From assembly GCA_026075535.2 (NCBI GenBank), contig AP026538.1, forward strand, positions 2,108,001 to 2,172,000: a stretch of 64,000 bases of DNA, given 5' to 3'. Position 1 is the stretch's first letter. Each line of letters begins with the position of its first letter. Positions 3,855 through 53,258 of this stretch are shown here, piece after piece. A model generated the notes under the pieces. The model made no database searches and was not told the DNA's origin. It saw nothing but the letters and a program-made list of their open reading frames with translations. Source of the stretch: Tricholoma matsutake (taxonomy: Eukaryota > Basidiomycota > Agaricomycetes > Agaricales > Tricholomataceae). The position numbers were made by a program, and so were the translations under genes.

Positions 3855-3938
3855 CAGATGAGAATTGAACACTTGACTACAGAGGATTATGTAAGCATAA
3901 ACCGACAACAATACCATTAGGCTAAACAATCATTACAG
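3855..3938 (-). other. tRNA-like pol III module, faces left
   Basis: On the minus strand an A-box-like TAGCCTAATGGTA (3912-3924) precedes a B-box-like GTGTTCAATTC (3862-3872). Not a functional tRNA: I see no acceptor stem pairing. Lies near the left end of the nested element. Confidence 0.6.
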
Positions 3939-5049
3939 GTAAGTGATCATACTACACTACATACCATTCCCGCGGGTGTGATGACAAAGCACATAGCTGC
4001 GTCATCACACCTGCCAGCTCATCAACTCCCACCACCACCACCAACGACGACAAGCATGCCACCTCCATCCCCCCCACCTCAACCACCTCAACCCAGCAAC
4101 TCCCACCACTCCCACTTCACCCCCATCTCTAGACAAGCCCCCAAGACCGGAAACGACTGGTTTCGACGCCGAACGATGCCCAAACAATGCAATTGTTGTT
4201 TGGGCTGTAGTAAGTTTTTTTTTTCATTTGTTTTTTACTTTTGTAGACTAACTAATTCATTTGTTTTGTTTCTAGGTTCTAATCTACATGAGTAACGATG
4301 GACTGACGCGAGCCAAACCCACACCCAACAATGCCCCTGGCAACCCCCCTCCTCCCCATCAAAACAGGATGTGAGGGTATCAATCATGGTCAGGAGCACG
4401 GGGAGTAACACCAGGAGACCCCAGAAGGGGAATACCTGCCCAGTAAGCACCACCCAACCCCTCCCCTTGTGCCACGTCACTGATGAACTGACAATGCACC
4501 CACCCCACGCCTACGAGCTGCTGCTTGTAGGGTGGTTCATGGGTGCAGACGACAAGGAGGATGAACAACAAGGGTGACAAAACAACAAGGGGAAAGGGAA
4601 ATGACGACCAGAAGGGGAGACGATGGCGACACCTGCCCCATGCATGCCTACAAGCATCTGCTCGTAGGGTGTTTAAGGGGAGGGGGAGGGAGGGAGGGGA
4701 CGATGGACAAACACCGCCACCAACATATGACGCACCACCCACCACCAGCCTCACGAGCAACTGCTTGTGGGGTGGAATGACGAGGGAGGGGAGATGAGGG
4801 AGGCAAGGTGAGGGAGGCGAGACACGATGGAGACAAGAGGGAGGGGAAATGACAGGACAGGGCTGACGAGACAGCCAACGCGATGCACCACCTCCCCCTC
4901 CCCCCTGTTTTGCGGGGGGGTGGGTTTTTTTTGTAGAATTTAAAATAGTATAATTAAATAGTATAATTAATTCTCCCCCTCGCGTTTGTGTGGGGGGTTT
5001 TAAAAAAATCTATATTAGTTATCTACTCCCTCGCGAAGATGTGAGGGCT

Positions 5050-5240
5050 CAACGACAGCCAACGCGATGCACCACCTCCCCCTCCCCCCTGTTTTGTGGG
5101 GGGGGTGGGTTTTTTTTGTAGAATTTAAAATAGTATAATTAAATAGTATAATTAATTCTCCCCCTCGCGTTTGCGTGGGGGGTTTTAAAAAAATCTATAT
5201 TAGTTATCTACTCCCTTGCGAAGATGTGAGGGCTCAACAA
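5050..5240 (+). repeat. Tandem duplicate of a GC-clamp hairpin block
   Basis: The block starting GACAGCCAACGCGATGCACC occurs at about 4869 and again at about 5053, nearly identical over about 180 bp. It contains CCCCCTCGCGTTTG hairpins separated by AT-rich sequence. The duplication is inside the nested MULE-like element. Confidence 0.7.
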
Positions 5241-5329
5241 TTTTTTTTCGAGCTCTTGTGAGAGAGGTTAAAAATAAGTGAACTAATCCTAAGTGCTTTA
5301 AGTGGACTTTATATTACATATTTATTAAT

Positions 5330-5412
5330 GCTCCTGTGGCTCAACTGGTTGAGCACTTGTTTGGTAGTCATGTGACTTATATCCCAAGGTCTAGAGTTCA
5401 ATTCCTGCTCTC
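5330..5412 (+). other. tRNA-like pol III module, faces right
   Basis: A-box-like TGGCTCAACTGGTTGAGC (5337-5354) and B-box-like GAGTTCAATTCC (5394-5405), 40 bp apart, as in a tRNA gene with a degenerate anticodon region. Confidence 0.65.
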
Positions 5413-5797
5413 CCCATTTATTTTGTAAGCACTTCCATCAAGTTAAGTCTGCTGAAATGGTGTGGTATTCCAACTACTACCTGTTGGAATTGCATAGGAC
5501 TTTACTCGGAATTTACTAGGAACTTCTTGGAAATAAAAGTACATGGTCATCAAGATACATTCCGATCGGATTCCTATTGGACTCCTAGGACTAGTGTCAG
5601 ACTAGTAAGACTCCTATTGGAAAACTTGGACTCCTAGGACTCCGATAGGAATATGGGGGGGAGTGCAAAGTTTACCTTCTTTGGCTGAAAGTCCTGCCAA
5701 ACTAAATGTCCAGTCCGAGCTGAGTCCGAGTGGACCAGGACTCATACAGTCCTAGGACTGTCTGAGTTGCTTATATAATTGACTGAAAAATCAGTGG

Positions 5798-5880
5798 CTA
5801 CCACAGGGATTGAACCCTCATAGTCACATGATAAAGTACCTTTAAGGCAACAATATAACCGTTAGACTAAAGTATCATTA
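5798..5880 (-). other. tRNA-like pol III module, faces left
   Basis: Minus-strand A-box-like TAGTCTAACGGTT (5857-5869) and B-box GGGTTCAATCCC (5806-5817). The same type recurs near 27961, 41371 and 46571, always at the AGGTC end of an element. Confidence 0.65.
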
Positions 5881-6105
5881 CAGGTAGATAGTTTTATCTC
5901 TCTATGTACCGCCCTGGCTGTGATGACAAATCAACACAGCCATGTCACCAACGATGATGCCAGCTCATCATCGATCATCATCGTTCACCACCAACCACCA
6001 CCACCACCACCACTCAACAACGACACCTCCCTCCTGCATCCCGCTGCTGCCACTGCCCCCTGAACACCCCACAGCCACAGGCCCCATGCCAGCACACGAC
6101 GAAAT

Positions 6106-6206
6106 GGGCCCAAACAATGGTAGAGTCGATTGGGCCCCAGGTGAGTTTTTTCTTTTTTCTTTTCTCATGTTTTCTTTAAGCTGACACATTTTTTCATTAA
6201 TTATAG
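6106..6206 (+). other. Hairpin-intron cassette (type i)
   Basis: GGGCCCAA (6106-6113) pairs with TTGGGCCC (6130-6137). The donor CAG|GTGAGT follows three bases after the stem. The intron-like segment 6141-6206 is T-rich and ends in TATAG (66 nt). Confidence 0.65.
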
Positions 6207-6356
6207 GTTATATCTATACTGTAGCAGCACAATGACCCCAAAACCACCAAACAAGGAACAACGATGAGACCACGACCCAGCAGCTGCCCCCGCCAGTGCG
6301 AGCAGCTGCTAACAATGACGACGATGACAGGGAACGATGACACCACCCGCTCCAGC

Positions 6357-6876
6357 CCTATGAGCCACTGCTTGTAGGGTGGACAATGGGTGGAACGACA
6401 ATGATTAGGGGAGACCCAAGAGATGTCAACGTCTCTTGGGTCCTAGGTAATCTTTTTTTCTTTTCTCATTTCATTTTTTGATGCTAACTAACTTTTTATA
6501 GGTTCAAACTACTACTGGCAACAACGACAACGGGGGGACACCACCACCACCACTGCTGCGAGCCCCTGCTCGCAGGGTGGAAGGTGAGGGTGAAGAGACG
6601 AGGGGGAAGGGAGATGAGGGGGAAGGGAGACAAGAGGGAAGGGAGATGAGAGGGAAGAGAGACAAGGGGGAAGGGAGACAAGAGGGAAGGGAGACAAGAG
6701 GGAATGGAGACGACGACGATGAGTGGGGACACCCACAATGACACCCGCTTCACGCCTACGAGCATCTGCTCATGGGGTGGTTCAGGGGGGAGAAGAATGG
6801 GGACAGGAGAGCAAGACGGCCAGGGGATGACCCGGGGAGAGACGAATGCCACCACGAGCAACAGTTGCTCGTGGTG
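6357..6876 (+). repeat. Array of GAGC-loop-GCTC hairpins with GGGTGG tail
   Basis: Hairpins at 6357-6376, 6557-6574, 6756-6774 and 6850-6876 share a GAGC/GCTC core and usually a GGGTGG tail, but have different outer stem bases (CTATGAGC, TGCGAGC, CTACGAGC, CCACGAGC) matched on the other arm. Similar units occur throughout the family, e.g. 52711-52728 (GATGAGCA/TGCTCATC). Confidence 0.7.
6413..6501 (+). other. Hairpin-intron cassette (type ii)
   Basis: Near-perfect palindrome 6413-6442 (GACCCAAGAGA arms), then CTAG|GTAATC. The intron-like segment 6447-6501 contains a CTAAC branch-point-like motif and ends in TATAG (55 nt). The same stem with paired base changes occurs near 40683, 45885, 25590 and 33966. 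Confidence 0.65.
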
Positions 6877-7076
6877 GGTGTTTTTAATTTATTTGTATTA
6901 TTGATAGTTATGGCCCCCTCCCCTCGAGCTTGTGAGGGGAGGGCTTAGTATTATTTTAATTACCCATATTAATTACCCCTCGCACAGATGTGAGGGGGTC
7001 AATTTAATAATCTATGCATGATATATATAAAAATTAGATTTCAGTAATAAATAGATATGATGTATGTCACTTGAAA

Positions 7077-7165
7077 TGACTACTTGGCTTAAGTGGTAGA
7101 GTGTGCATGTTTCGTTGTCATGTGATTGCTAGTCCAGAAGGCTGTTGGTTCAATTCCTGCTGTGC
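7077..7165 (+). other. tRNA-like pol III module, faces right
   Basis: A-box-like TTGGCTTAAGTGGTAGAG (7084-7101) and B-box TGGTTCAATTCC (7146-7157). The same type is at 39755 and 45226 on the minus strand, always at the GTACTG end. Confidence 0.65.
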
Positions 7166-7551
7166 ACACATTATTTTGTGAGACTTATAAGACTTTCTCT
7201 AAGACTGGAACTTGGACTTTACTTGGACAGTACTTTAGAAGGTGTAAATAAATGCACAATTGATATTGTCCAAGCAAAGTCCGAGTGCAGTCCAAGTGTC
7301 TGAGCAAAGTCTGAGCAGAGTCTGAGCAGAGTCTGAGTGAAGTCCTCGGACAGTCCGAGTGAAGTCCTCAGACAGTCTGAGTGTCCAAGTGTCCGAGCAG
7401 AGTCCAAGCAGAGTCTGCTTGGACTGGGGGGGGAGTGTAAAGTACTGGGAGCAGGCGCAGAAGGTAGAATGGGCAATGATGTGGGTGACCGTGTCGAGCC
7501 TCGTTTCCACTGGAAGAAGGTGCACCTCTTCCCATCCTTCACATGCCTACA

Positions 7552-7604
7552 CTAGAAAGAGGTTGAGCTGCGAATGAAAGAAGAGTTTCGCTGCATATAC
7601 ATAC
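7552..7604 (-). other. Spliceosomal intron in GRF zinc finger
   Basis: Minus-strand GTATGT donor and TTCTAG acceptor, 53 nt. Removal joins GRLMVA to CRHVKDGKR and so restores the metal-binding spacing of the GRF finger. Confidence 0.75.
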
Positions 7605-7754
7605 TGCGACCATGAGGCGGCCTTGGTTGCCCTTCTCATTACTCAGCACAACACAATACTCGCAGAATGCACCACATCCAGTGCAAAAGAGACCCTTGCC
7701 AGGTACTAAAACATCGCCCATGGTTATCGGCTCCAGCAGAAATGTAGAAGGCAT

Positions 7755-8043
7755 TGCGCAGCAGGCAAGAAAGAATGGATGTAATACTACAGAGACAGTC
7801 AGTAATATACTGTAACTTACTGTAATGAACATATATGTGTGCTTACCTGCGAACAATTAGCAGCTGCCCAGAGGAGGTCCCAGCACCGTTACAAACAGCG
7901 AGCCTGTTGATATTGATAAGTACTGACATCAACGTCGATGACAGTGTTGGCTTGTTTGGCTGTATGGTTGCTTGGCAGGCTCGGACTGTCAGATGTTCGG
8001 ACACACCCGGATGTTTGGGGATTCCAAAATTGAGATTTTCTGG
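7755..8043. other. Upstream region of GRF gene, no gene seen
   Basis: Upstream of the inferred start of the GRF gene. I see no coding region. A short GGACTGTC-like stretch near 8000 may be a leftover end of the truncated element that follows. Confidence 0.4.
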
Positions 8044-8101
8044 AGCTCAAAGGACTTCAGACTTGGTGAATTTCATAGAGTACCCACAAAATAAATTTGT
8101 G

Positions 8102-8190
8102 TACTGCAGGAATTGAACTCAAGACCTCACCATAAGGAGTCACATGACAAACCAAACAAGTGTGCTCAACCACTTGAGCCACAGGAAACT
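8102..8190 (-). other. tRNA-like pol III module, faces left
   Basis: Minus-strand A-box-like TGTGGCTCAAGTGGTTGAGC (8164-8183) and B-box GAGTTCAATTCC (8109-8120). Confidence 0.65.
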
Positions 8191-9550
8191 TATTAGAGAT
8201 CAATATAAGGTTTATTTATGACTCAACTTTTCATATTCTTCGAGCAGGCATTTTTCAAACAATTAAGATCAAAAAATTTTAATTAACCACATTCCTCGTG
8301 TAGGACACGAGGGAGTGGGTATAATATAATAATAAACAAAAAAAAAACCCTCTCGCATCTTGTGAGAGGGGGGGGGATTACTACTATGTACATAAAAAAC
8401 TAAACCCCTCATGTTCAGCGCGAGGGGGGGATTTGTAAGTACTACAATATATATATCCCTTGCATTTGGTGCGAGGGGGGGGCAGAGATATATTAAAAAT
8501 AATAAAGACCCCTCCCCTTGCAAAATGCGGGGGAGGGGGGGTTGGGGGATGCAGTCTGGGGTGGGTGTCGTCGCCCACCCCTCCTCGCACACATCTGTCA
8601 CCATAGCAAGCCACACCCATCATCCACCCTATGAGCAGAGGCTTGTAGGCATGGGGATGGGTGCCGTGGTTGTTGTAGCCCTGGTCTACCCGCCATCCAC
8701 CCGACGAGCAGGTGCTCGTCAGTGTGGGGTGGGTGTGTTGTTGGTTTTGCAGGTCTCCTAGTTCGGAGGGGTTGGGGGGAGGGGTCAGTGATGTGGCATG
8801 CGAGGGAGGGGGTAGGTGGGTGCTTACCAGGTGGGTATCCTGCTCCACAGGTCTCCTGGTACCCCTCTGCTGTCTCCTACCCTTTATCAACACCCTCACA
8901 TCCCATTTGGACGGGGAGGAGGGGGCTGGCACAGATGTCGTCGGGTCTGGGTTGATCCCCATCGTTCCATGTTGGTGTCAGTGTTGCCCTGTCATTGTTT
9001 GCTGTCATCACCTCCATTCCACCCGTGATCCACCCCCGAGCAGTTGCTGAAGGGGCTGGAGGTGGGTGGTGTGTTGTTGCCCCCATTGCTTCGCATTCTG
9101 GGGGTCCTGGTGACACTCACGATCCACCCTACAAGCAGGGGCTTGCAGGCATGGGGTGGGTGTGTGGGGTTGTCTCATGTCTGGCTGTCGGTCATTACCA
9201 GTAGAGTAGAACCTACAAAACAAAAGAAATGAGTTAGTTTATAAAAACAAAAAGCAAACGAAAAAAAACTTACCTAGGGCCCAAATGATGCGATCTGCGT
9301 TGTTTGGGCCCATGTTCCTTCCATTCGGCTCATTTGTGGGTGGTGGTCATGGCAAATAGGGCATGGGAGCAGTGGCAGTGGGTGTCCACACAGTGGTGGT
9401 GGTGGTAGAGAGAGGAGGGAGGGAGGCGGCATCGACGGTGGTGGTGGTGGTGGTGAGTGATGAACTGGCACATTTGATGATGCGGCAATATGCTTTGTCA
9501 TACACAGCCGCACCACGGTACCTAATGCAAGTAGATGATGCCTTACACAA

Positions 9551-9640
9551 GGTACTGTGGTGTAACGGTTATATTGTACATTATGATTGATTACATAAGC
9601 AACCTACAGGGATCTGGGTTTGATTCCTTTTCTTACACAC
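9551..9640 (+). other. tRNA-like pol III module, faces right
   Basis: A-box-like TGTGGTGTAACGGTTATA (9556-9573) and B-box GGGTTTGATTCC (9616-9627). Confidence 0.65.
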
Positions 9641-9843
9641 TTTTTCAGCGGAATCCAACTGGACTCCAACTGGACTCCACTGGACCAGTCCGAGTGGAAT
9701 CCGGTGTTTGAGTGGATTCCACTTGGAGTCCGGTTGGACTGGACTGGGACTGGACTGGCAACTTTGCAGGCAGTTGGCTGGTGACCAGTCCCAGTGGACT
9801 CCAGTCAGAGTCCACTAGAAAAGGTGGGGGAGTGTAAAGACCT

Positions 9844-11130
9844 CATTCCCATGTCCATTCCTGATGGCGATGCCCTGGCCATCCTGTGGCTGTGGCTGCA
9901 TCTATGCCCATTGCATTTCAAGTGTTACTAATGTCTGTATTACAATCCCAATGCATGTCTATTGTAAGGTATAATAATCAGAGAAACCTGAGTGGACAGA
10001 GAAATGGGAGTGGCCAGGATATGGCAGCAGCCAGAGACACGACAGTGGCCTTTGTTCAATGGCATACATTGAAACAGATATACAAGGCCATTTCCATGTC
10101 CATCCCCATGTCTGTGGCCATCCCTGTAGCCATGTCTGTACCCATTGCATTTCAAATGTCTGTATTACATTCTTAATGCATGTCAATTGTAAGGTATAAT
10201 AATCAGACAAACAGGAGCAGACAGAGAAATGGGACCAGACATGAGAGTGGCCAGAGGCATGGGAGTGGCATAGTTTGATGGCATACATTGAAACAGATAT
10301 ACAATGCCATCCCCATGTCCATCCCCATGTCCGTGTCTGTGTCCGTGGCTGTGTCTGTGCCCATTGCAATTCAAATGTTACTAATGTCTGTATTACACTC
10401 CTAATGCATATTGATTGTAAGGTACAATAATAAGAGAAATGGGAGAGGCCAGAGAAATGGGAGCAGCACAGACACTGGAGCAGCCAGAGACATGGGAGCA
10501 GCTGTAGTTCGATGGCATACATCAAAACAGATATACAAGGCCATCCCCATGTCAGTGGCTGTGTCAGTGGCTGTGTCCATGGCCATGTCTGTGCCCATTG
10601 CATTTCAAATGTTACTAATGTCTGTATTACATTCCTAATGCATGTCTATAGTTAGTTCAACAGCATACATCAAAACAGATATACAAGGCCATCCCCATGT
10701 CCGTCCCCATGTCTGTGGCCATGTCTGTGTCTGTGTCCATGGCTGTGTCCATGGCTGTGTCCATGTCTGTGCCCATTGCAATTCAAATGTTACTAATGTC
10801 TGTATTACATTCCTAATGCATCCCCATGTCCGTCCCCATGTCTGTGGCCATGTCTGTGTCTGTGTCCATGGCTGTGTCCATGTCTGTGCCCATGTCTGTG
10901 CCCATTGCAATTCAAATGTTACTAATGTCTGTATTACATTCCTAATGCATCTCTAATGTAAGGTATAATAATCAGTGTACAATGTAGTCATTGGTTAACA
11001 TAGCATGTACATGGCGTGTCCATCCCCATATCCATCCCCATGTCCATATGTGTGCCTGTTGCATTTCAAATGTTACTAATGTCTGTATTACATTCCTAAT
11101 GCATGTCTATTGTAAGGTATAGTAATCAGT
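9844..11130. repeat. Tandem array of about 100-240-bp units
   Basis: A core containing GTTACTAATGTCTGTATTAC, followed by a TCCTAATGCAT-like and a TGTAAGGTATAATAATCAG-like stretch, recurs near 9930, 10160, 10375, 10615, 10785, 10915 and 11070. Units differ by insertion of CCATGTCTGTGTC-type 6-bp repeats and ACATACATTGAAACAGATATA stretches of varied length. Coding potential is absent. The array begins exactly at the end of the truncated MULE-like element. Confidence 0.75.
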
Positions 11131-27470: not shown

Positions 27471-28281
27471 TGGGTGGGCTGGTGGTGTTGTCATTCCCTG
27501 CCATCATCGTCGCCATTAGCAGCAACTCTCCCCCATGTGAGCAATTGCTTGCACTGGTGGGAGTGGGTGCTGGGTTGTGGTCTTGTCATTGTTCTTCATC
27601 TGGTGGTTTGGGGGTCATTGTGCTGCTACAGTATAGATATAACCTATAATTGATGAAAAAATGTGTTAGCTTAAAGAAAACATGAGAAAAGAAAAAAGAA
27701 AAAACTCACCTGGGGCCCAATCAACTCTATTGTCATTTGGGCCCATTTCATCATGTGCTGGCATGGGACCCATGGCTGTGGGGTGTTCAGGGGGCAGTGG
27801 TGGCAGCGGGATGCAGGAGGGAGGTGGTGGCATTGAGTGGTGGTGGTGGTGGTTGGTGATGATCAATGATGAGCTGGGATCATTGTTGGTGACACAGCTG
27901 TGTTGATTTGTCATCACAGCTGGGGCGGTACATAGAGAGATAAAACTATTTACCTGTAATGATACTTTAGTCTAACGGTTATATTGTTGCCTTCATTGTA
28001 CTTTATCATGTGACTACAAGGGTTCAATCCCTGCAGTAGCCACTGATTTTTCAGTCAATTATATAAGCAACTTGGACAGTCCTAGGACTGTACAAGTGCT
28101 GGTCCACTCGTACTCTGCTCAGATGCTTGGACAGTCCAGGGACCCAGCTTGGACTGGACATCTAGTTTGGCAGGACTTTCAGCCAACAAAATCTGAGCAA
28201 AGTCCTAGGACTGTCCTCGGTATGTCCGAGTGTCTGAGCAGAGTCCACTTGGATTGGGGGGGGGGGGGAGTGTAAAGACCT
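27471..28281 (-). mobile_element. MULE-like element fragment (AGGTC half)
   Basis: The right end GGGGAGTGTAAAGACCT is intact at 28281. The left boundary is abrupt at about 27471 inside sequence matching 40885-40935. It carries a minus-strand hairpin-intron cassette near 27640-27750, a CAC-repeat stretch and one tRNA-like module (27961-28041). The CCAACATTG after 28281 has no matching duplication on the left. Confidence 0.7.
27961..28041 (+). other. tRNA-like pol III module, faces right
   Basis: A-box-like TAGTCTAACGGTTA (27968-27981) and B-box GGGTTCAATCCC (28020-28031). Confidence 0.65.
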
Positions 28282-31200
28282 CCAACATTGCCATCCACAA
28301 ACTAGCACAGGCAATGATCCTACTTGCTGCAATGCCACAGAAGTATGATTCATTATCCACCATGGTCCTTAACATGGTTGCTACTAGTGCCTTGACATTC
28401 AAACATGTCAAGGACTCCATTGTCGCTGAAGCCTCTAGGCACACAGCAGTTGGAAAGCCGACTGGCCCACTTCAGGCCAATAAGCTTTCTGCTGTCAAAC
28501 GCAAGGGCAAGAACCCCAAGTGGCAGCCCAAAGAAGAGCAAGACAACAATGGAGAGTCATCCCAAAAGCATGGATGACACGGGGACAGAAAGACTAAGGA
28601 GGATAAGCCCAAAGAGAAGCATACCTACTGCCTCCAGTGCCTTTACCATCATAAATGGTAATGGCACCATCATACCACTGATGCTGCTCATTCAGTGCAT
28701 TGAACAGTGTGACCACACTCCCACAAGGGACCCTTGCCGCTGACTGCCTGCACAGGGATATATGGGTGCAGCTTCTACCTCTCATTTGGTTTACGCCGAA
28801 TATCAGCATGCTTGAGACACCCTTGAGCAAATGCAACTTCTGTGCAGTGGGAAAATCTGCAACTGCTGGAAGAGCACCTGACAGTGTGAGAAGGTAAGAG
28901 AAGGAGGATCAAACCGGAAGAACCAGAAGAGCCTAGAATCATGGAGGTCGAAGACAATACTGTCTCCCTCATTTCAGAGCCTCCAGTCTCTGATGAAGAA
29001 GTGTGGAAGGCCATCGACGAGATGCTCATCAATGAACCACTTGACATTGGTGGATATGATGACAGGTCAGTCTTTTTCCCTGCCACAAGCACTAAGATTA
29101 ATATTCCAATGAATACAGCAAACTTTTCATGTGAAATTTTACTGCTGTTAAATGTATCATGGAATTACCTAGATCTTAATATATGTGTTTTGTGTGCAAA
29201 TGGAAATTGTAAGAAAGGTGCCAACTGAATCATTGATTCAGGTGCATCAAAGCACTTCACTGGTGAAATGAAAGATTTCGCTTCCTATGAACCTTTACTG
29301 AGAAAGGACTCTACCTTGGTTCAAACAGCCACAGGTACTACTCATATAGTAGGAAAGGGAGCAGTCTTCATTAGACATCAGGTAGTATGTCATGGGAAGT
29401 CAGAGACACACAAAACACAATTATACCATGTCTACTACATACCTGAATGTAGTACTCAACTACTTTCAATGGGCATCTTTTTACAAGATGGAAGTGATGT
29501 GCATGGTTCCTCCACACACATTTCTTTTTTTGAGACAGGAAACCCAATAATGGATTGTGTCCCTCTTAGGAGACATGACACAATCTATTGGGCTCAGACT
29601 CATATATTGAGCACCAAGAGGATGAAGGTCATGATGATGTACGTTGCTGATGACTTGACTTGGCATAGGCAACTTGGACACCCATCCAAAGAGGCGCTAG
29701 GGAAAATGCCTAACAGCACCATAAAATTCCCAAGGAATTTAATTATTCCTAAAGACAACATTATATGTCCAGGGTGCGCTGAAGGGAAAATGATGTCAAA
29801 ATCTTTTCCTGAATCAAATTCACAGGCAGAGAAAACCTTTGAATTAATACATTCTGATCTAAAGGAACTCCTGGTACTTTTGTACCACAAACATAAATAC
29901 TTCATTGTATTTCTGGATGACAAAATGTCACATATCTGGACCCAGTGCCTTAGAAAGAAGTCTGACACCACTGCAGTGATCAAACAATTTCTGGCAATGG
30001 CTTTGACCCAGTATGGCACTACAATTGAGTGCTGGTGTGTTGATCCAGGGGGGGAGTTCAAAGATCATGAGCTACAAAATGTGCTCAAGGATTTCAGCAT
30101 CAAAATAGAGATGGCCACACCCACATTCACCAACAGAATGGGCAGGCAGAGTGCACCATAAGGACAATAATGGAAAAGTTGCAAACCCTGTGATTTATTG
30201 CCTATCTACCACAATCATGGTAGGAATGTTGCATTAAACATACAACATACTTATACAACCAAACCCCAATAAGGCACCTGAAATGGCTGACACCTTTTAA
30301 GGACCTGAAACAGGTCCACCCAGATCTAAATCATCTGAAGGTTTTTGGTTGTGGTGCATATGTCTATCTACCCAAGGAAAAATGTCCAACCACATTATCT
30401 CCTTGATCGGAGTTAATGACATACCTTGGATTGAAAGATGGCATTAAAGCATACCATTTCATGTGATGCAATGGCACAATATTCATTGGTGCTGTGGCAC
30501 TATTTGATGAAACATTGTTCCCATGCTGTCCCGGAGCTAAAACTCCTGCCAAGACAGACCTTGGTGATTTTCCACCTCCAGAACCAGAAGATGACGACCA
30601 CTCATCTGGAATGGATGGCGATGATCCTATACTGCCACAAAACCTGCCCCTTCCTCTGTCATCAGAAGATGATGATGATGATGTACCAAGTGAGCAAAAG
30701 GTGCATGAAGATGCAACTGATGCTCCTCCTCTGCTGCCTCCAGTAACCACTGAGAACTTTTGTCCAAGACATGATGATCAACAGGAATGGCAGCAATTGC
30801 CCCACTGATCAGGCAGGCAGAGGAACATCCCAAACCATCCCAGCAATACCTATGGAGAAAAGCAACTCCCCTCTGACATAGAGAGAGACATTGCACATGA
30901 TCAATATTGGAAGAGATCTGTGGGTCAAGATTTGGATCATAACCAAACATGGCCACAATCTCAACAGCAAGAACCAGTTGCTGGACTGAGTTTGGCACCC
31001 CACAAGAGTGTTCCCAATTCCAATAATCAAGAACATGACCCAATGGGGGAACCAGATGAAGCAGGTTAAATCAAAAAGATAACCAAGGAAGGAGGAGATA
31101 AGCTTATTTGCTGGCTGTTATCAAGAGCAGTCACACCATCAAGCGAAATAAGCCAAGTTCCAAACCAATTTCACAATATTGCACACCTACCACAGCAGCA

Positions 31201-39344: not shown

Positions 39345-39361
39345 TGAGGCAGGCCACCCCT

Positions 39362-39563: not shown

Positions 39564-39754
39564 CAGTACTTTACACTCCCCCCCCCCAGTCCAAGTGGAC
39601 TCCGCTTGGACTCTGCTTGGACACTCAGACTGCACTCGGACTTTGCTCGGACAACATCAATTGTGCATTTATTTACGCCTTCTAAAGTACTGTCCAAGTA
39701 AAGTCTGAGTTCCAGTCTTAGAGAAAGTCTTATAAGTCTCACAAAATAATGTGT

Positions 39755-39842
39755 GCACAGCAGGAATTGAACCAACAGCCTTCTGGACTAGCAATCACAT
39801 GACAACAAAACATGCACACTCTACCACTTAAGCCAAGTAGTC
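39755..39842 (-). other. tRNA-like pol III module, faces left
   Basis: Minus-strand A-box-like CTTGGCTTAAGTGGTAGAG (39820-39838) and B-box TGGTTCAATTCC (39763-39774). Confidence 0.65.
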
Positions 39843-41370
39843 ATTTAAAGTTACATACATCATATCTATTTATTACTGAAATCTAATTTTTTATATATTA
39901 TATTTCACAAAGAATTTCTAACTATATTTCAGAAAGGAGGAATTATGAGGCTGGCCTTGTGTTGTGTGCCAACCTATGACCCATGTGAAGCTCAGATTGG
40001 ACACATTGGAGGCTTTTGTGATGGGCCACCCTCATAATTTCTCCTTTCTGAAATATAGTTAGAAATTTAGTCTCAAATGTAATATTTCACAAAGAATTTC
40101 TAAATATATTTCAGAAAGGAGGAATTATGAGGCTGGCCTTGTGTCATGAATAGATTATTAAATTGACCCCCTCGCATCTGTGCGAGGGGTAATTAATATG
40201 GGTAATTAAATAATACTAAGCCCTCCCCTCGCGAGCTCGAGGGGAGGGGGCTGTAACTATCAATAATAAAAATAAATTAAAAACACCCACCATGAGCAAC
40301 TGTTGCTTGTGGCGGCATTCGTCTCTCCCCAGGTTGTCCCCTGGCTGTCTCACTCTCCTGTCCCCATTCTTCTCCCCCCCAAACCACACCACGAGCAGAT
40401 GCTCATAGGCATGGGGCAGGTGTCGTCATGGGTGTCCCCGCTCATCGTCATCTCCCTTCCCCCTTGTCTCTCTTCCCTCTCATCTCCCTTCCCTCTCGTC
40501 TCCCTTCCCCCTCGTCTCTTCACCCTCACCTTCCACCCTGCAAGCAGGGCCTTGCAGCAGTGGTGGTGGTGGTGTCCCCCCATTGTCGTCGTCGCCAGTA
40601 GTAGTTTGTACCTAAAAAAAGTTGGTTAGCATCAAAAAATGAAATGAGAAAAGGGAAAAAAAACTTATCTAGAACCCAAGAGACGTCAACGTCTCTTGGG
40701 CCTTTTTTTTCTCCCTGTCAGTACCTGCACTCTTGCACCCCCCATCCACCCCACGAGCAGTTGCCTGCGGCGGTTATGGGGGGTGCTGGCTGTCATTGGG
40801 GTCTCCCCTAATTGTCATCGTTCCACCTGTTGTCCACCCTATGAGCAGTGGCCCGTAGGGCTGGGGCAGGTGGTGTCATCCTTCCCTGTCATTGTTGTCA
40901 TTGTTAGCAGCCACTCTCCCCCATGCGAGCAGTTGCTCGCACTGGCGGGGGTGGGTGCTGGGTTGTGGTCTCATCATTGTTCCTTGTTTGGTGGTTTTGG
41001 GGTCATTGTGCTGCTACAGTATAGATATAACCTATAATTAATGAAAAAATGTGTTAGCTTAAAGAAAACATGAGAAAAGAAGAAAACATGAGAAAAGAAA
41101 AAAGAAAAAACTCACCTGGGGCCCAAACAACTCTATCGTTGTTTGTGCCCATTTCATCGTGTGCTGGCACGAGGCTGTGGCTGTGGGGTGTTCAGGGGGC
41201 AGTGGCAGCAGTGGGACATGGGAGGGAGGCATCACCATCGAGTGGTGGTGGTGGTAGTGGTGGTTGGTGATGATTAATGATGAGCTGGCATCATCGTTGG
41301 TGATGCGGCTGTGTTGATTTGTCATCACAGCTGGGGCACTACATAGAGAGATAAAACTATCTACCTGTAA

Positions 41371-41452
41371 TGATACTTTAGTCTAACAGTTATATTGTTG
41401 CCTTAAATGTACTTTATCATGTGACTATGAGGGTTCAATCCCTGCGGTAGCC
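41371..41452 (+). other. tRNA-like pol III module, faces right
   Basis: A-box-like TAGTCTAACAGTTA (41379-41392) and B-box GGGTTCAATCCC (41431-41442). Confidence 0.65.
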
Positions 41453-41722
41453 ACTGATTTTTCAGTCAATTATACAAGCAACTCGGACAGTCCTAGGACT
41501 GTACAAGTGCTGGTCCACTCAGACTCTGCTCAGATGCTTGGACAGTCTGAGGACTCAGCTTGGACTCAGCTCGGACTGGACATTTAGTTTGGCAGGACTT
41601 TCAGCCAAAGAAGTCCAAGCAAAGTCCGAGCAAAGTCCTCAGACAGTACTTGGACAGGACTCGGACAGTCCAAGTGTCTGAGCAGAGTTTGCTCAGATTG
41701 GGGGGGGGGAGTGTAAAGACCT

Positions 41723-42546
41723 CCCTTTTTTATGTGTTCGATTCTCTCCTGGTAGGAGAGGCAGTTGATCTCAAGTGGGGTTTCTTTTGCCTTAGAGGTG
41801 GGGAGCTTCTTTGTAAAAGTCTCTTGTAGCCTCCCTGGTATGGCCTTTGCTCTTCTCCACTGTCCGTCGTACTTGGAGGCAGCATTGATCATTCCCTCCA
41901 AGGTCATAGGGATTGTTTCCATATTGAATACTCTTTTGAGGAGCTTGGGGTTCAACCCATCCATAAAGAGTTCAATGAGGGTGGTGTTGTCATTGATTCC
42001 CGCCTTCTCTCACAGGATTCAGAACTGTGCTATGTAGTCCTCCAGGTCCTGTCCCTTCTTCAATGTTTTCATCTCTGTCCTGGCTCTGCCAGCTTCATCA
42101 ATTGGTGTGAACACTGTCTTGCGTGCCGATTCAAAGGCTGACCATATTCCTAGGTCTTCCTTTTCTGCCCATGTCTGTGCCCAGGGCAAGGCAGTTCCTC
42201 CATTCATGAACGACAATGTGAAGATGATCTTCTTCTCATCGGTGTCATAGATTCCATGGTTCACTCTCAGATAGAGTTTCACTTCTTGTAAGAACTTCAC
42301 AGTTCTAGTTTGGTCCCCTGTGAAGTTGGAGGGGGTTTGTATCCTGATCTCCTTGGTCGATCCGGTGGGTTCGGTAGACATGTTGGGATTGTCGTCGGAT
42401 AGGGAGAATGGATCTTGTTCTGGGGTTTCTTTTTTATCAAAAGATCTGAAATCCTCTTCATCGAGGTATCGGGGTTCTTCATCACTGGTTCTCCTTGAGA
42501 ACCACTTCCCCTGGTTCTCCTTGAGAACCACTTCCCCTGGTTCCAA
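41723..42546 (-). pseudogene. Chromovirus Gag, 5' part
   Basis: From ATG 42546: acidic N terminus, then the Ty3 retro-gag fold signature (SNFTGDQTRTVKFLQEVKLYL, FMNGGTALPWAQTW, LEDYIAQF). A stop near 42019 is followed by a continuing frame (FMDGLNPKLLKRVF, SKYDGQWRRAK) to the MULE-like insertion at 41723. Forms the particle shell in intact elements. Confidence 0.8.
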
Positions 42547-42689
42547 GTATCATACTAGTCGACCCTGGTATCTATACCATGGGGTTCTTCCTGATGATGA
42601 TGCACCGGTTGGAGGTCTGTCTGGGCTTTGTCTGAAAGACATTGTGTCTGCACCTAGGTAGGTGGACTTTGTAGATCAGCTTGACCTTT

Positions 42690-45008: not shown

Positions 45009-45225
45009 CAGTACTTTACACTCCCCCCCCAGTCCAAACAGACTCCGCTCGGACACACTCGGACACTTGGACTCTGCTCAGACTCTGCTCAGACTCTGCT
45101 CGGACACTCAGACTTTGCTTGGACTTTGCTCGGACAACATCAATTGTGCATTTACTTACACCTTTAAAGTACTGTCCAAGTTCCAGACTTACAGAAATTC
45201 TTATAAGTCTCACAAAATGATGTGT

Positions 45226-45312
45226 GCACAGCAGGAATTGAACCAACAGAGTTCTGGACTAGCAATCACATGATGACCAAACATGCACACTCTACCACTT
45301 AAGCCAAGTAGT
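45226..45312 (-). other. tRNA-like pol III module, faces left
   Basis: Minus-strand A-box-like CTTGGCTTAAGTGGTAGAG (45290-45308) and B-box TGGTTCAATTCC (45234-45245). Confidence 0.65.
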
Positions 45313-46247
45313 CATCTAAAGTCACATACATTATATCTATTTATTACTGAAATCTAATTTTTATATATATCATGAATAAATTATTAAATTGACCCCCTCG
45401 CATCTGTGCAAGGGGTAATTAATATGTGTAATACTAGGCCCTCCCCTTGCAAGCTCAAGGGGAGGGGGCCATAACTATCAATACTAAAAAAACACCCACC
45501 ATGAGCAACTGTTGCTCATGGCGGTGTTCGTCTCTCCCTGGGTCATCCCCTGGCCATCTCACTCTCCTGTCCCCATTCTTCTCCCCCCCAAACCACCCCA
45601 CGAGCAGATGCTTGTAGGCATGGGGCAGGTATCATCATGGATGTCCCCACTCGTCATCATCTCCCTTCCCTCTTGTCTCCCTTCCCTCTCATCTCCCTTC
45701 CCCCTTGTCTCCTTTCCCCCTCATCTCTTCACCCTCACCTTCCACCCTGTGAGCAGGGGCTTGCAGCAGTGGTGGTGGTGGTGTCCCCCTGTCGTCATTG
45801 TCACCAGTAGTAGTTTGTACCTAAAAAAAGCTGGTTAGCATCGAAAAATGAAATGAGAAAAGGAAAAAAAACTTACCTAGGACCCATGAGACATTGACAT
45901 CTCTTGGGCCTTTTTTTTCTCCCTGTCAGTACCTGCACTCTTGCACCCCCCATCCACCCCGCAAGCAGTTGCCTGTGGCAGTTATGTGGGGTGCTGGCTG
46001 TTGTTGGGGTCTCCCCTAATTGTCGTCGTTCCACCTGTTGTCCACCCTACAAGCAGTGGCTCGTAGGGCTGGGGTGGGTGGTGTCATCCTTCCCTGTTGT
46101 TGTTGTCATTGTTGTTAGCAGCTGCTCTCCCCCATGCGAGCAGTTGCTCGCACTGGCAGGGGTGGGTGCTGGGTCATGGTCTCATCATTGTTCCTTGTTT
46201 GGTGGTTTTGGGGTCATTGTGCTACTACAGTATATTGTATATATAAC

Positions 46248-46346
46248 CTATAATTAATAAAAAAATGTGTTAGCTTAAAGAAAACATGAGAAAAGAAAAA
46301 AGAAAAAACTCACCTGGGGCCCAAATGACAATAGAGTCATTTGGGC
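46248..46346 (-). other. Hairpin-intron cassette (type i)
   Basis: Minus strand: GGGCCCAAATGAC pairs with GTCATTTGGGCCC, followed by CAG|GTGAG. The intron-like segment 46248-46313 (66 nt) ends in TATAG. Compared with 51964-51998 the stem has AATGAC/GTCATT instead of AACGAC/GTCGTT, a compensated change. Confidence 0.65.
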
Positions 46347-46570
46347 CCATTTCATCATGTGCTGGCATGGGGCCCATGGCTGTGGGGTGTTCAGGGGGCA
46401 GTGGTGGCAGCGGGACATGGGAGGGAGGCGTTGTCATCCAGTGGTGGTGGTGGTGGTGGTGGTTGGTGATGATCAATGATGAGCTGGCATCATTGTTGGT
46501 GATGCAGCTGTGTTGATTTGTCATCACAGCCAGGGCAGTATATAGAGAGACAAAACTATCTACCTGTAAT

Positions 46571-46651
46571 GATACTTTAGTCTAACAGTTATATTGTTGC
46601 CTTAAATGTACTTTATCATGTGACTACAAGGGTTCAATCCCTGCAGTAGCG
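46571..46651 (+). other. tRNA-like pol III module, faces right
   Basis: A-box-like TAGTCTAACAGTTA (46578-46591) and B-box GGGTTCAATCCC (46630-46641). Confidence 0.65.
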
Positions 46652-46909
46652 ACTGATTTTTCAGTCAATTATATAAGCAACTCAGACAGTCCTAGGACTG
46701 TACAAGTGCTGGTCCACTCAGACTCTGCTCGGATGCTCGGATAGTCCAAGGACTCAGCTCGGACTGGACATCTAGTTTGGCAGGAATTTCAGCCAAAGAA
46801 GTCCAAGCAAAGTCTGAGCAAAGTCCTCAGACAGTCCGAGTACAGTCCAAGTACAGTCCGAGTGTCTGAGCAGACTCTGCTTGGATTGGGGGGGGGAGTG
46901 TAAAGACCT

Positions 46910-47634
46910 CAGAGATGCCAAACACAGCTCTTAGATCAAAATATCAGTCTGTGATTGGATGTATCTGATGCTTGGATCGTGACCTGATATCACTTATGCA
47001 GTAATCAAGATGTTGCAATTCTTGGCTAATCCCAGCCAAGGACATCTAGACAAAGTGATGTACATCATGCGCTATCTGGTGGGAACCCAGAATATGATAT
47101 TGTCTACAATGGAGAGAAATCTGAAGGACTACAAGCCTTCACAGATTCTGATTGGTCAGCTGACATAGTCAAGCACCAATCTACAATGGGTTACTTTGCT
47201 GCTCTAGCGAGTGGCATTGTGTGCTGGCAGTCCCATTTACAAAAAACTGTAGCACTTTCATCCACAGAAGCTGAATACATGGCTCTCTCCAACATTTGTC
47301 AGCAGATAGCATGGATAGAGTCCTTATTTGAGGAACTTGGATATATATACTGAAGCGCATACCAATCTGCACTGATAATCAGGGATCCATCTTTATCAGA
47401 TCAAATCCAGTTCAAGAAAGAAGGACTAAACACATAGACATTCACTACCACTATACCCATGAATGCATAGAAAATGACAAAGTCACAGTTGTTTTCATTC
47501 CTGGAAGTGATAATCCAGCTGACATGTTCACAAAGAACCTTGGTGCTATCCTATTCAGGAAATTTAGAGACTCTCCTGGAATTACTTTCAAGATTCAAAC
47601 CTAGCTGCTTAGAGTGGTACAGTTTGAGGGGGGG
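46910..47634 (+). pseudogene. Copia RNase H and 3' end
   Basis: SKYQSVIG junction, then copia RNase H: DSDWSAD, STMGYFAAL, VALSSTEAEYMAL, a frameshift near 47352, TDNQGSI and PADMFTKNLG. The D, E and D catalytic positions are visible. A purine tract TTTGAGGGGGGG precedes the LTR at 47635. Confidence 0.85.
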
Positions 47635-47908: not shown

Positions 47909-48119
47909 TGTGGCACTCAAATGAGTGTCAAAACCTGTAAATACAACATGTAAATAGAAAATCAATTGTTCATGGGGTGTATCCCTACCCTGGCCCTGAC
48001 GATGCTGATGACAATGATGCCATGTTGTTGTTGTAATCAGCTCCTGTCCAAGTAAGTAAAGTAAATCAATGGTTTGCAGCACTCATCTGAGTGCTGAAAC
48101 CTGTAAATAGAACTGTAGG
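47909..48119. repeat. Direct repeat pair next to copia LTR
   Basis: A motif with GCACTCAAATGAGTGTC then AAACCTGTAAATA (about 47912-47943) recurs at 48076-48108 with small changes. No gene. Confidence 0.45.
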
Positions 48120-49612: not shown

Positions 49613-51072
49613 TGATGATACTCGACCAGGAAACCCAAACAAAACCCACAATAACACCTCGAATGGTATAACTGTAGTTAGAGGAAGGTTGCAAGGTGGT
49701 ACTAAATATCACCGCTGTTACCCAACATTAGGGAAACAACTTTAGAGAGGGTCCGATGATGTTCAATGAGGTTCAAGAGTGTACAAAGTGCTGTGAGAAA
49801 GTTGGAGGAAAGGTTGAGGAAGTTTGAGGAATTTCAAAGAAGTTCAAGAAAGTTCAGAGAGGTTCAAGGGGCTTATAGAGAATGAGGACAATTTCAACAA
49901 AGCCTGAGAATAGACTATAAGGATGTAGAAGGCCTTGCGAGGTGATAGACAATAGATGATTGTTTTGAGAAGCTAGTAGAAGAAGTTTGAAGAAGTTTGG
50001 CATAAAACACTGAACTTCAAGACTGAGAAGAGAGGCTTGGACTCAAGAGAATTGCTCTTAAGGTAGAGCAAATTCATAGTCATCCAATGTCACGTGTTTG
50101 GTCAGATAACTCAAAATTACAATGAAATGTGAGCATAGAAAACTTTTGAGAACAGTAATAAAAATTCTGCTTCCCACAAAAGTTTTATATGTTAGATTAG
50201 AAGCTTTTGAATCAGATAGATTTATTTTAGAGTGCTGTAAGGAAGTGGAGATTCCATGAGAGTTGTGCAAGAGGTTCAATGTGCACATGATGCTTGATGT
50301 AGAAAGGATTGAAACTTGTTGCAAAATCTCCACTTCCTCACAGCACTCTAAAATAAATCTATCTGATTCAAAAGCTTCTAATCTAACATATAAAACTTTT
50401 GTGGGAAGCAGAATTTTTATTACTGTTCTCAAAAGTTTTCTATGCTCACATTTCATTGTAATTTTGAGTTATCTGACCAAACATGTGACTATGGATTTGC
50501 TCTACCTTAAATCAGACAATTGATGTGAGAGGATGATCTATTCTGTCTTTCCAAGTAGCTAGTACAAGGCTATATATGTTTGGAAGAGATGGTACTTAAA
50601 AGGAAATAAAACATGAGGAATACATGAGGCAAGATATAAAACAATAAAGAACTTTGCAAATCATAAAATAAATGAAAGAAGATGAGAAGGGAAACATATA
50701 GAGTCACAATTTTATTATGGGTACCTGTCATATTGATCCAATATATCATCAAGACATCAAAGCATGACAATTGCATCCTAAAATCCCATCATCGTGTCTC
50801 CTTGTGTCCGGTGGTGCTCGATATGTGATGCACTAACTCATACAAGGTGTGCTGCATGTGTCTGAAGGGCGGTGCAATAGGTATATGGTGGCCAAAGATG
50901 TAAGTGTTGTGAAATCATTCAACGTCGTTCAAAATTGTTCAAAATAGTTTGAAATAGTTTCGGAGTGGTCTCATGGGGTTCGTAGGGGTTGGGAGCATGT
51001 GTGGTGATGTGTCAATGCATTTGGAGATGTTCCCAGAGCTTAGATCACAAGGTGGACCTATTATCCTCCCCC
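49613..51072 (+). mobile_element. GATGATA-family repeat, full copy
   Basis: Left end TGATGATACTCGACC, right end AAGGTGGACCTATTATC, the inverse of the ends of 43564-44890. Contains AAGTTTGAGGAA-type short repeats and a foldback MITE (50062-50506). Boundary duplication not found. Confidence 0.6.
50062..50506. mobile_element. Foldback MITE flanked by TTAA
   Basis: Arms of about 190 bp, nearly perfect inverse of each other, beginning GGTAGAGCAAATTCATAGTC. TTAA stands at both borders (50058-50061, 50507-50510), the target of piggyBac-type transposases. The loop of about 70 bp has no coding content. Confidence 0.75.
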
Positions 51073-51329
51073 TTACTAAAATCCTGACTGTCCCAGTCAG
51101 CCGATCGGAGTCACATGCAAAATGTGTGATCGTGTTGAAAATGTCAACAAAATTCGAAATACCTCTTGTTCTTCTTCATCACTCCTACACCTTTGATACT
51201 ACTTCTATCATGTCCCTCCTCACCAAACTCAACACCAAAGTCCCCGAGTACGCAAAATTGATCCCAGATCATGGTGTTGCCAAAGACCTCAACTTCGAAG
51301 TGTGGGGGAAAGGTTTTTGTGAGAAGATG

Positions 51330-51382
51330 GTAAGTTTCTGCTTCTTATTCAATATTCAAGGATTCTACCATGATATGTTCAG
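51330..51382 (+). other. Spliceosomal intron
   Basis: GTAAGT donor at 51330 and TTCAG acceptor at 51382, 53 nt. Joins GFCEKM to AEYDELV in frame. Confidence 0.65.
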
Positions 51383-51639
51383 GCAGAATATGACGAACTG
51401 GTGGGCAATTTGGGTGAAGAGCACAACTCAATCATGCAAAAGGTCATCAATGAAGTTTTCAAGCTTTTCAAACTGATGGAGGTCTTTACACTCCCCCACC
51501 TTTCCACTGGGACTGGTCACCAGCCAACTGCCTGCAAAGTTGCCAGTCCAGTCCCAGTCCAGTCTGACCGGACTCCACTCAGACTGGTCCAGTGGAGTCC
51601 AAGTGGAGTCCAGTTGGATTCTGCTGAAAAAGTGTTTAA

Positions 51640-51725
51640 GAAAAGGAATTGAACCCAGATCCCTGTAGGTTGCTTATGTAATCAATCATAATGTACAATA
51701 TAACCATTACACCACAGTACCTTGT
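51640..51725 (-). other. tRNA-like pol III module, faces left
   Basis: Minus-strand A-box-like TGTGGTGTAATGGTTATA (51700-51717) and B-box GGGTTCAATTCC (51645-51656). Confidence 0.65.
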
Positions 51726-51963
51726 GTAAGGCATCATCTACTAGCATTAGGTACTGTGGTGTGGCCATGTATGACAAAGCATATTGCCGCATCATCAAAT
51801 GTGCCAGCTCATCACTCACCACCACCACCACCACCACCGTCAACACTGCCTCCCTCCCTCCTCTCTCTACCACCACCACCACTGCATGGACACCCACTGC
51901 CGCCACTCCCATGCCCAATCCACCATCACCACCACCCACAAACAAGCCGAATGGATGGAACAT

Positions 51964-52066
51964 GGGCCCAAACGACACAGATCGCGTCGTTTGGGCCCTA
52001 GGTAAGTTTTTTTTCGTTTGCTTTTTGTTTTTATAAACTAACTAACCAGTTTCTTTAGTTTTCTAG
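51964..52066 (+). other. Hairpin-intron cassette (type i, best example)
   Basis: GGGCCCAAACGAC (51964-51976) pairs perfectly with GTCGTTTGGGCCC (51986-51998). TAG follows, then GTAAGT at 52002. The intron-like segment has CTAACTAAC near 52038 and ends TTCTAG at 52066 (65 nt). Confidence 0.7.
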
Positions 52067-53170
52067 GTTATAATCTACTGGTAATGACACCACCACCCAC
52101 AAACGAGCCAACTGGATGGAATGCAGATTCAAATGACACACGCGTCGTTTGGGCCCTACATAAGTTTTTTTTGTTTGCTTTTTGTTTTTATAAACTAACT
52201 AACTCATTTCTTTTGTTTTGTAGGTTCTACTCTACTGGTAACGACTGACAGCCAGATGCAAGACAACCCCACACACCCACCCCACACCTGTGAGCCCCTG
52301 CTCATAGGGTGGATTGTGAGTGTCACCAGGACCCCCAGAATGCGAAGCAATGGGGCCAATGACACACCACCCACCTCCAGCCCCTTCAGCAACTGCTCGG
52401 GGGGTGGATCATGGGTGGAATGGAGGTGATGACAGCAAACAATGACAGGGCAATGCCAATGCCAACACGGAACGATGGGGATCAACCCAGACCCGATGAC
52501 ACCCATGCCAGCCCCCTCCTCCCAATCCAAATGGGATGTGAGGGTGTTGATAAAGGGTAGGAGATGGCAGAGGGGTACCAGGAGACCTGCGGAGCAGGAT
52601 ACCCACCTGGTAAGCACCCCCCCTCCCTCGCATGCCACATCACTGACCCCTCCCCCCAACCCCTCCAAACTAGGAGACCCACAAAACCAACAACACACCC
52701 ACCCCATGCTGATGAGCACCTGCTCATCGGGTGGATGGCAGGTAGACCAGGGCTACAGCGACAGACACGTGCGAGGAGGGGTGGGCGATGACACCCACCC
52801 CAGACTGCATCCCCCAACCCCCCCTCCCCCGCATTTTGCAAGGGGAGGGGTCTTTATTATTTTTAATATATCTCTGCCCCCCCCTCGCACCAAATGCAAG
52901 GGATATATATATTGTAGTACTTACAAATCCCCCCCTCGCGCTGAACGCAAGGGGTTTAGTTTTTTATGTACATAGTAGTAATCCCCCCCCCTCTCGCATC
53001 TTGTGAGAGGGGTTTTTTTTTGTTTATTATTATATTATACCCACTCCCTCATGTCCTAGATGAGGGATGTGGTTAATTAAAATTTTTTGATCTTAATTGT
53101 TTGAAAAATGCCTGCTCGAAGAATATGAAAAGTTGAGTCATAAATAAACCTTATATAGATCTCTAATAAG

Positions 53171-53258
53171 TCTCCTGTGGCTCAAGTGGTTGAGCACACT
53201 TGTTTGGTTTGTCATGTGATTCCTTATGGTGAGGTCTTGAGTTCAATTCCTGCAGTAC
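53171..53258 (+). other. tRNA-like pol III module, faces right
   Basis: A-box-like TGGCTCAAGTGGTTGAGC (53178-53195) and B-box GAGTTCAATTCC (53239-53250). Confidence 0.65.

What the first reader, a model, noticed from the sequence alone, without database searches (positions are those of the whole stretch)
3855..53258. Two different tRNA-like modules per element, always facing outward
Every complete copy has one module near each end with A-box and B-box spaced about as in a tRNA gene. The one near the AGGTC end is of TAAYGGTTA type, the one near the GTACTG end of GGCTYAAGTGGTWGAG type, so they derive from different tRNAs. In each of three subfamilies both types are present and both point to the nearest terminus (pairs 3855/5330, 5798/7077, 8102/9551, 39755/41371, 45226/46571, 51640/53171). 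Pol III starting there would transcribe across the terminal arrays and out into flanking DNA. Outward promoters could silence, insulate or mark boundaries, as tRNA genes do, or help recruit insertion.
Basis: partly seen in the sequence, partly recalled or inferred. Interest (0 to 1): 0.82.

Follow-up and report, generated by a model that had tools for sequence, protein, structure and literature searches.

The report
Mushroom transposons with paired tRNA-like promoters
A family of non-coding jumping DNA elements in the matsutake mushroom carries near each end a small tRNA-gene-like promoter unit that points outward but also has its own stop signal, so it more likely makes a short RNA or binds the tRNA transcription machinery than transcribes the neighbouring DNA.

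Summary
All 13 tRNA-like modules in the window's seven copies are real, well above chance, and point to their own terminus. The genome is Tricholoma matsutake TMA_r1.1. The elements are non-coding TIR DNA transposons with 8-bp target-site duplications and 963 exact GAGGTC ends genome-wide. Between three diverged subfamilies the module at the CAGTAC end (type 2) is a sharp island of conservation. The one at the GAGGTC end (type 1) is conserved, but less than its interior flank. The modules resemble tRNA genes as promoters (A box, B box, T4-T5 run), not as tRNAs.

A T-run follows nearly every module within 45 nt of the B box, inside the element, so transcription out into flanking DNA is not expected. 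Six of ten sampled ends with the same terminus had no module, so mobility does not seem to need one. Best reading: self-terminating pol III units, or TFIIIC platforms, bracketing an interior with intron-like units and covarying hairpins; occupancy and function are untested. This looks like a TIR-transposon counterpart of TRIMp3/Helenus retroelements. Three literature searches listed no such element. The autonomous partner was not found.

The parts
3421..7447 (+). Element B (subfamily B), interrupted by element A; GAGGTC end at 3421, CAGTAC end at 7447
   Evidence: Exact ends; 8-bp duplication GAGCAGGC at 3413-3420 and 7449-7456 (one base after the end) read by eye
3527..5675 (+). Element A (subfamily A), nested in the left array of B; duplication CTTCTTTG at 3519-3526 and 5676-5683
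   Evidence: by eye; the same ends in the fetched A copies
8043..9844 (-). Element C (subfamily C), CAGTAC terminus missing, GAGGTC end at 9844
27476..28282 (-). Half element D (subfamily B, GAGGTC half only)
39564..41723 (-). Element E (subfamily B); 8-bp duplication CCTTTTTT on both sides
45009..46910 (-). Element F (subfamily B); 8-bp duplication AGAGATGC (+ strand)
51479..53486 (+). Element G (subfamily C); 8-bp duplication AACTGATG
3841..3925 (-). Type-1 module of A: A box, B box, T5
5337..5424 (+). Type-2 module of A: A box, B box, T4
5786..5869 (-). Type-1 module of B: A box, B box, T5
7085..7177 (+). Type-2 module of B: A box, B box, T4; only module listed by lax Rfam tRNA search (18 bits)
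8088..8181 (-). Type-2 module of C: A box, B box, T4
9558..9646 (+). Type-1 module of C: A box, B box, T4 at once and T5 further on
27968..28051 (+). Type-1 module of D: A box, B box, T5
39743..39835 (-). Type-2 module of E
41379..41462 (+). Type-1 module of E
45214..45306 (-). Type-2 module of F
46578..46661 (+). Type-1 module of F
51627..51714 (-). Type-1 module of G
53178..53271 (+). Type-2 module of G

Best explanation
These are non-autonomous, non-coding TIR DNA transposons of Tricholoma matsutake, moved in trans by an unidentified transposase that leaves 8-bp duplications. One lineage of them (subfamilies A, B, C and at least one more, L098) carries near each end a tRNA-derived pol III unit (A box, B box, T-run) turned away from the interior. 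Likely action (inferred): TFIIIC binds the boxes, and pol III may make an RNA of roughly 80-115 nt that stops at the T-run inside the element. The two units bracket an interior that looks like a spliced, hairpin-rich non-coding transcript and may keep it open or separated from surrounding heterochromatin. Shown here: anatomy, orientation, duplications, conservation of type 2 between subfamilies, T-runs, lack of a long reading frame. Inferred: TFIIIC or pol III occupancy, the RNA, the interior transcript, any boundary role.
For: TIRs and 8-bp duplications: 35 of 39 B/C copies match at 7 or more of 8 bases, mismatched pairings 2 of 1482, and 7 of 7 fetched A copies. Modules above chance in the window and in 43 and 47 of 47 copies. 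Orientation genome-wide 43 outward, 0 inward, 28 without an exact end nearby. Type-2 island between subfamilies. T-runs, as after native tRNAs. No fold beyond shuffles in 6 module RNAs, so promoter function is likelier than a structured RNA product. L093 carries a different A+B+T4 module at the same end of a hairpin-bearing element.
Against: No occupancy or RNA data were available. Six of 10 sampled CAGTAC ends have no module. Type 1 is less conserved than its interior flank, and 4 of 47 copies fail the type-1 motif. L098 aligns with B over about 180 bp, wider than the module. Flank replacement instead of constraint could make the type-2 island. CpG decay in the modules is as elsewhere.
Confidence: 0.6

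Rival explanations
1. Outward promoters: pol III starts at the modules and reads through the terminal arrays into flanking DNA, altering neighbours.
For: Outward orientation in every paired copy scored and in 43 of 71 genome-wide motifs, none inward. 3 of 45 scored type-2 modules lack a T-run within 45 nt. T4 can be leaky (recalled).
Against: T-run of 4 or more within 45 nt in 43 of 43 type-1 and 42 of 45 type-2 modules scored, far before the terminus; native tRNA loci end in T4-T5.
Confidence: 0.08
2. Relics: tRNA or SINE sequences captured long ago and carried along without function; the type-2 island reflects exchange of flanks between elements.
For: Modules have lost the tRNA fold. Families without modules move as well, judging by shared termini. 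Type 1 is not an island. Subfamilies share only patches.
Against: Boxes and T-run keep their places in three or four diverged subfamilies while flanks fall to the null; a different module fills the same place in L093.
Confidence: 0.22
3. Subterminal protein-binding site: the conserved thing is the octamer TCATGTGA (bound by a transposase or a host bHLH factor), and the tRNA likeness is secondary.
For: The octamer occurs 15 times in the window against 2.3 expected from base composition, 10 of them inside the 13 modules, and recurs in the subterminal tandem repeats of the module-free family L095/L096/L099.
Against: Absent from type-1 modules of A and C, from all but one of 8 A copies, and from L093, L094, L097, L102; does not explain box pair plus T-run.
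Confidence: 0.1

Closest known systems
TRIMp3 retroelements: Helenus (tRNA-like sequence in the LTR), Cassandra and Ajax (5S rRNA-like); PMC10886601, abstract, outline and passages seen
   Same: [quoted passage not shown] mostly not functional tRNAs; conservation around the promoter motifs
   Different: Those are LTR elements with 4- or 5-bp duplications; here TIRs, 8-bp duplications, two unlike modules in opposite directions, a T-run before the terminus
tRNA-derived SINEs (recalled)
   Same: A and B boxes of a tRNA-like head
   Different: SINEs move by reverse transcription and end in a tail; here TIRs and fixed 8-bp duplications
Extra-TFIIIC sites, and A/B-box loci without tRNA on Dictyostelium rDNA (PMC5391098, passages seen)
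   Same: A and B boxes at tRNA-like spacing without a tRNA; possible TFIIIC platforms
   Different: Here carried by a mobile element in hundreds of copies; occupancy not measured
KDZ (Zisupton/Dileera) and hAT transposons (PMC12730594, passages seen)
   Same: 8-bp duplications
   Different: No transposase of either group found between these termini; superfamily open

Membership tests
Non-autonomous TIR DNA transposon | Terminal inverted repeats | tested here: met
   Inverted ends
Non-autonomous TIR DNA transposon | Target-site duplication of fixed length | tested here: met
   8 bp; 35 of 39 B/C copies at 7 or more of 8 bases, 7 of 7 A copies
Non-autonomous TIR DNA transposon | No transposase inside | tested here: met
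   Longest ATG-started frame in the three consensus sequences 192 aa (C), spliced or not, rich in simple repeats; no family search was run on these frames
KDZ Zisupton/Dileera | 8-bp duplication | tested here: met
   rule from passages of PMC12730594
KDZ Zisupton/Dileera | Mobilised by a KDZ transposase | tested here: inconclusive
   KDZ hits abundant; 4 of 21 typed C1 hits have an exact end within 9 kb, none inside a matching pair
hAT | 8-bp duplication | tested here: met
   rule from passages of PMC12730594
hAT | Mobilised by a hAT transposase | tested here: inconclusive
   Hits compared with C1 ends by eye; none close
TRIMp3 / Helenus | Small-RNA-gene pol III promoter in the element's ends | tested here: met
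   A and B boxes and T-run; occupancy not testable
TRIMp3 / Helenus | LTRs in direct orientation with 4- or 5-bp duplications | tested here: not met
   Inverted ends, 8-bp duplications
SINE | No TIR, duplications of variable length | tested here: not met
tRNA gene | Cloverleaf recognised by tRNA models | tested here: not met
   ARAGORN 0, Rfam gathering 0, one lax hit at 18 bits
Pol III type-2 promoter / TFIIIC site | TFIIIC or pol III occupancy | not testable with these tools
   No ChIP or RNA data held

The most novel reading that the evidence does not exclude
A lineage of DNA transposons carries a matched pair of divergent tRNA-type TFIIIC platforms as portable boundaries around a spliced, hairpin-rich non-coding RNA unit, keeping it expressible in a methylated, repeat-dense genome: a mobile insulated RNA cassette in which different tRNA-like modules (type 1, type 2, the L093 kind) fill the same role.
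Probability: 0.18. Interest if true: 0.8.

Novelty: new variant of a known kind. Interest (0 to 1): 0.52.

Why it matters
Pol III promoters in mobile elements are known from SINEs and TRIMp3 retroelements, where an RNA of the element is needed to move. A TIR DNA transposon does not need one, so conserved pol III-type units at both ends ask for another role, such as boundary or chromatin opening. With hundreds of young copies in a finished genome, occupancy, short RNAs and effects on neighbours can be tested directly.

Tried and rejected
Rejected: a 9-bp duplication (first by eye); the G before AGGTC belongs to the element, so it is 8 bp. Modules as tRNA genes. Conservation inside one subfamily as a test, because copies differ mostly at CpG-like sites. 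Selected RNA fold of the modules (6 tested, z -1.26 to 0.69). Protein coding after splicing. L092 as autonomous element: a composite with an LTR-element frame inside. L090 and L091, fetched as candidate long elements, are abutting or nested elements.

5 of 17 Plavaka and 4 of 21 KDZ hits typed have an exact end within 9 kb; the one nominally bracketed case (C1:4590157-4600464) is accounted for by a 2.1-kb element at its left. Literature: the listings show no TIR element with pol III modules; only listings were seen. In PMC6980582 the terms DNA transposon, MITE, TIR, tRNA, SINE and unclassified do not occur. megB1 (passages of PMC10627285) is described there as a dimeric Alu-like retroelement; no sequence comparison was made.

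Rows dropped and sampling: L054, L055, L071, L077 (a terminus not found) left out of the duplication and copy counts. Copies were taken from the best-scoring hits (20 of 40 scored for C, 20 of 40 for B, 7 of 40 for A), so they lean to well-kept copies. Of the 57 listed CAGTAC ends without an exact type-2-B A box, 10 were read, all on C1.
Full report
Genome. The window lies at G000:C1:2108001-2172000. Contig lengths C12 9,912,917 and C13 9,869,253 and the total 161,040,721 equal the table of the telomere-to-telomere T. matsutake assembly in PMC10211490 (passages). That table gives 25.4% unclassified repeats and 13 SINE copies.

Elements. Seven copies or parts lie in the window: A nested in B, a truncated C, a half D, then E, F and G. 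The ends are GAGGTCTTTACACTCC and CAGTACTTTACACTCC; in A the second reads GTAAACTTTGCACTCC, and in C one base differs. The genome holds 963 exact GAGGTCTTTACACTCCCC and 360 exact CAGTACTTTACACTCCCCC, with 0 for the reversed control of each. Of 39 B/C copies with both ends, 35 show an 8-bp duplication at 7 or more of 8 bases (25 perfect); mismatched pairings do so in 2 of 1482. All 7 fetched A copies do too. In the window A sits inside B's left array with its own duplication CTTCTTTG (by eye). Within a subfamily, copies differ mostly at CpG-like sites (non-CpG identity A 0.984, B 0.954, C 0.984): young, and decaying as methylated DNA would (inference).

Modules. Type 1 (GAGGTC end) has A boxes such as TAGTCTAACGGT; type 2 (CAGTAC end) has TGGCTCAAGTGG or TGGCTTAAGTGG. 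The B box starts 52-62 bp after the A box starts. In the window the box-pair scan gives 16 hits, the 13 modules and 3 others; 40 shuffles give mean 3.15, maximum 8. In 47 copies with both ends, type 1 is found in 43 and type 2 in 47. A run of 4 or more T lies within 45 nt of the B box in 43 of 43 scored type-1 and 42 of 45 scored type-2 modules. Of 30 tRNA loci fetched from this genome, 29 have T4 or T5 just downstream. 21 of the 30 are copies of one repeat and 4 of another; the 5 others (L009-L012, L017) all have T4 or T5. The natural prediction is a short RNA ending inside the element.

Orientation genome-wide. Exact type-2-B A boxes number 267 and exact type-1-B/D A boxes 101, reversed controls 0. 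Of the 71 type-2 boxes in the stretch where CAGTAC ends were listed (C1 to C3:12.39 Mb), 43 point to an exact end within 600 bp, none points inward, 28 have no exact end nearby. The type-1 list was not tested in this way.

Conservation. The useful comparison is between subfamilies. For type 2 the 108-bp module aligns at 70, 73 and 70% (z 8.6, 9.6, 8.0 against shuffles), while 100-bp steps on either side give z -2.1 to 2.9 (six steps, three pairs). BLAST of the consensus sequences shows the same block. L098, from a further subfamily, aligns with B over 240-419 at 70%, wider than the module itself. For type 1 the module gives z 5.2, 2.2, 3.6; the 100 bp on its interior side give 6.5, 9.2, 6.6, and a further interior step 2.5, 8.4, 6.0: conserved, but not an island. 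Replacement of flanks rather than constraint cannot be excluded.

What the modules are not. ARAGORN finds no tRNA in the window and Rfam none at gathering score. With a lax threshold on 3300-10000 one module is listed, at 18 bits, against 41-61 bits for the 53 matches of the tRNA search of the genome. Six module RNAs fold no better than shuffles (z -1.26 to 0.69). Which tRNAs they came from cannot be said. CpG retention is like the rest on few sites (type 1: 4, 2 and 2 sites in A, B, C; type 2: one site in B, none in A and C).

Not universal. Of 100 listed exact CAGTAC ends, 43 have the exact type-2-B A box inside 600 bp. Ten of the other 57 were read. Two hold decayed B modules (L100, L101), one a diverged type-2 module (L098), one a different A+B+T4 module (L093), and six none (L094-L097, L099, L102). 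The six include families with subterminal tandem repeats. So sharing these termini, and presumably the transposase, does not require a module. L093 and L098 also show the hairpin units of the A/B/C interior; none of the other eight does in the 480 bp read, and that includes L100 and L101, which belong to B. The link between modules and hairpin interior therefore rests on a small sample.

Interior. The three consensus sequences contain intron-like units (GTAAGT or GTGAGT, CTAAC, TAG; 57-66 nt) preceded by inverted repeats of the GGGCCCAAACG kind. They also contain repeated hairpins: in 17 window units, 5 of 12 predicted pairs keep pairing through changes on both sides, with a covariation term of only -1.03 kcal/mol; the units come from related copies and no shuffle control was run. 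No long reading frame appears, spliced or not. The intron direction puts the type-1 module upstream and divergent, the type-2 module downstream.

Mechanism and neighbours. Best supported: non-autonomous TIR transposons, one lineage of which carries two outward, self-terminating pol III-type units around a structured interior. Whether they make RNA or only bind TFIIIC is open. The closest described analogues are TRIMp3 retroelements (PMC10886601: abstract, outline and passages), which are LTR elements; the term DNA transposon does not occur in that text. Searches for TIR elements with pol III modules (listings only) showed none.

Autonomous partner. Not found. KDZ, Plavaka and hAT transposases are abundant, but none was seen inside a matching pair of ends in the part of C1 compared. 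Zisupton/Dileera and usual hAT make 8-bp duplications, Kyakuja 7, Plavaka 2-3 (PMC12730594 passages), so the superfamily stays open.

Noticed in passing
L014-L016, L018, L022-L038 (e.g. G000 C1:7782788-7783157, C1:9170984-9171351): 21 of 30 fetched tRNA loci are a tRNA-Ile(TAT) near the 3' end of a ~223-bp repeat TGTTGGATTA...TTTAACA with 5-bp duplications (by eye in L026, L034): solo LTRs; two pairs 294-296 bp apart look like LTR-LTR elements. A Helenus-like TRIM, which may explain the 275 of 277 TAT among tRNA-Ile reported for T. bakamatsutake (PMC10627285 passage).
   Followed up: partly
window 4495-4789, 6342-6891, 8610-9168, 40273-40958, 45482-46169, 52272-52752: Repeated hairpin units (CACCCnCC..TACGAGCAnnTGCTCGTA GGGTGG..GGGTG) in the interior, with both-sided changes at 5 of 12 pairs.
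   Followed up: partly
window 4210-4275, 6141-6206, 6447-6501, 9213-9273 (- strand), 52002-52066: Intron-like units in the interior, same direction in all three subfamilies, each preceded by an inverted repeat.
   Followed up: partly
10 of the 13 modules in the window; L095, L096, L099: Octamer TCATGTGA/TCACATGA between A and B boxes and, in a module-free family, in subterminal tandem repeats: 15 in the window against 2.3 expected.
   Followed up: partly
about 100 bp interior to each type-1 module (subfamilies A, B, C): This stretch is more conserved between subfamilies than the type-1 module (z 6.5-9.2); in A it is an inverted repeat GGTGTGATGAC/GTCATCACACC. Unexplained; perhaps the promoter of the interior unit.
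   Followed up: no
window 3688-3767: Near-perfect 80-bp inverted repeat in the terminal array of A; sub-threshold matches to microRNA families (50.7 bits against a gathering score of 90).
   Followed up: no
G000 C1 about 4.92, 5.08 (inverted) and 5.32 Mb: Three copies of what looks like one larger duplicated block with like spacing of a Plavaka hit, element ends and three type-2 A boxes.
   Followed up: no
L090, L091: A C-type element next to further element pieces with a B-like GAGGTC end and a degraded type-2 module, in the same order in both loci: a possible composite.
   Followed up: partly
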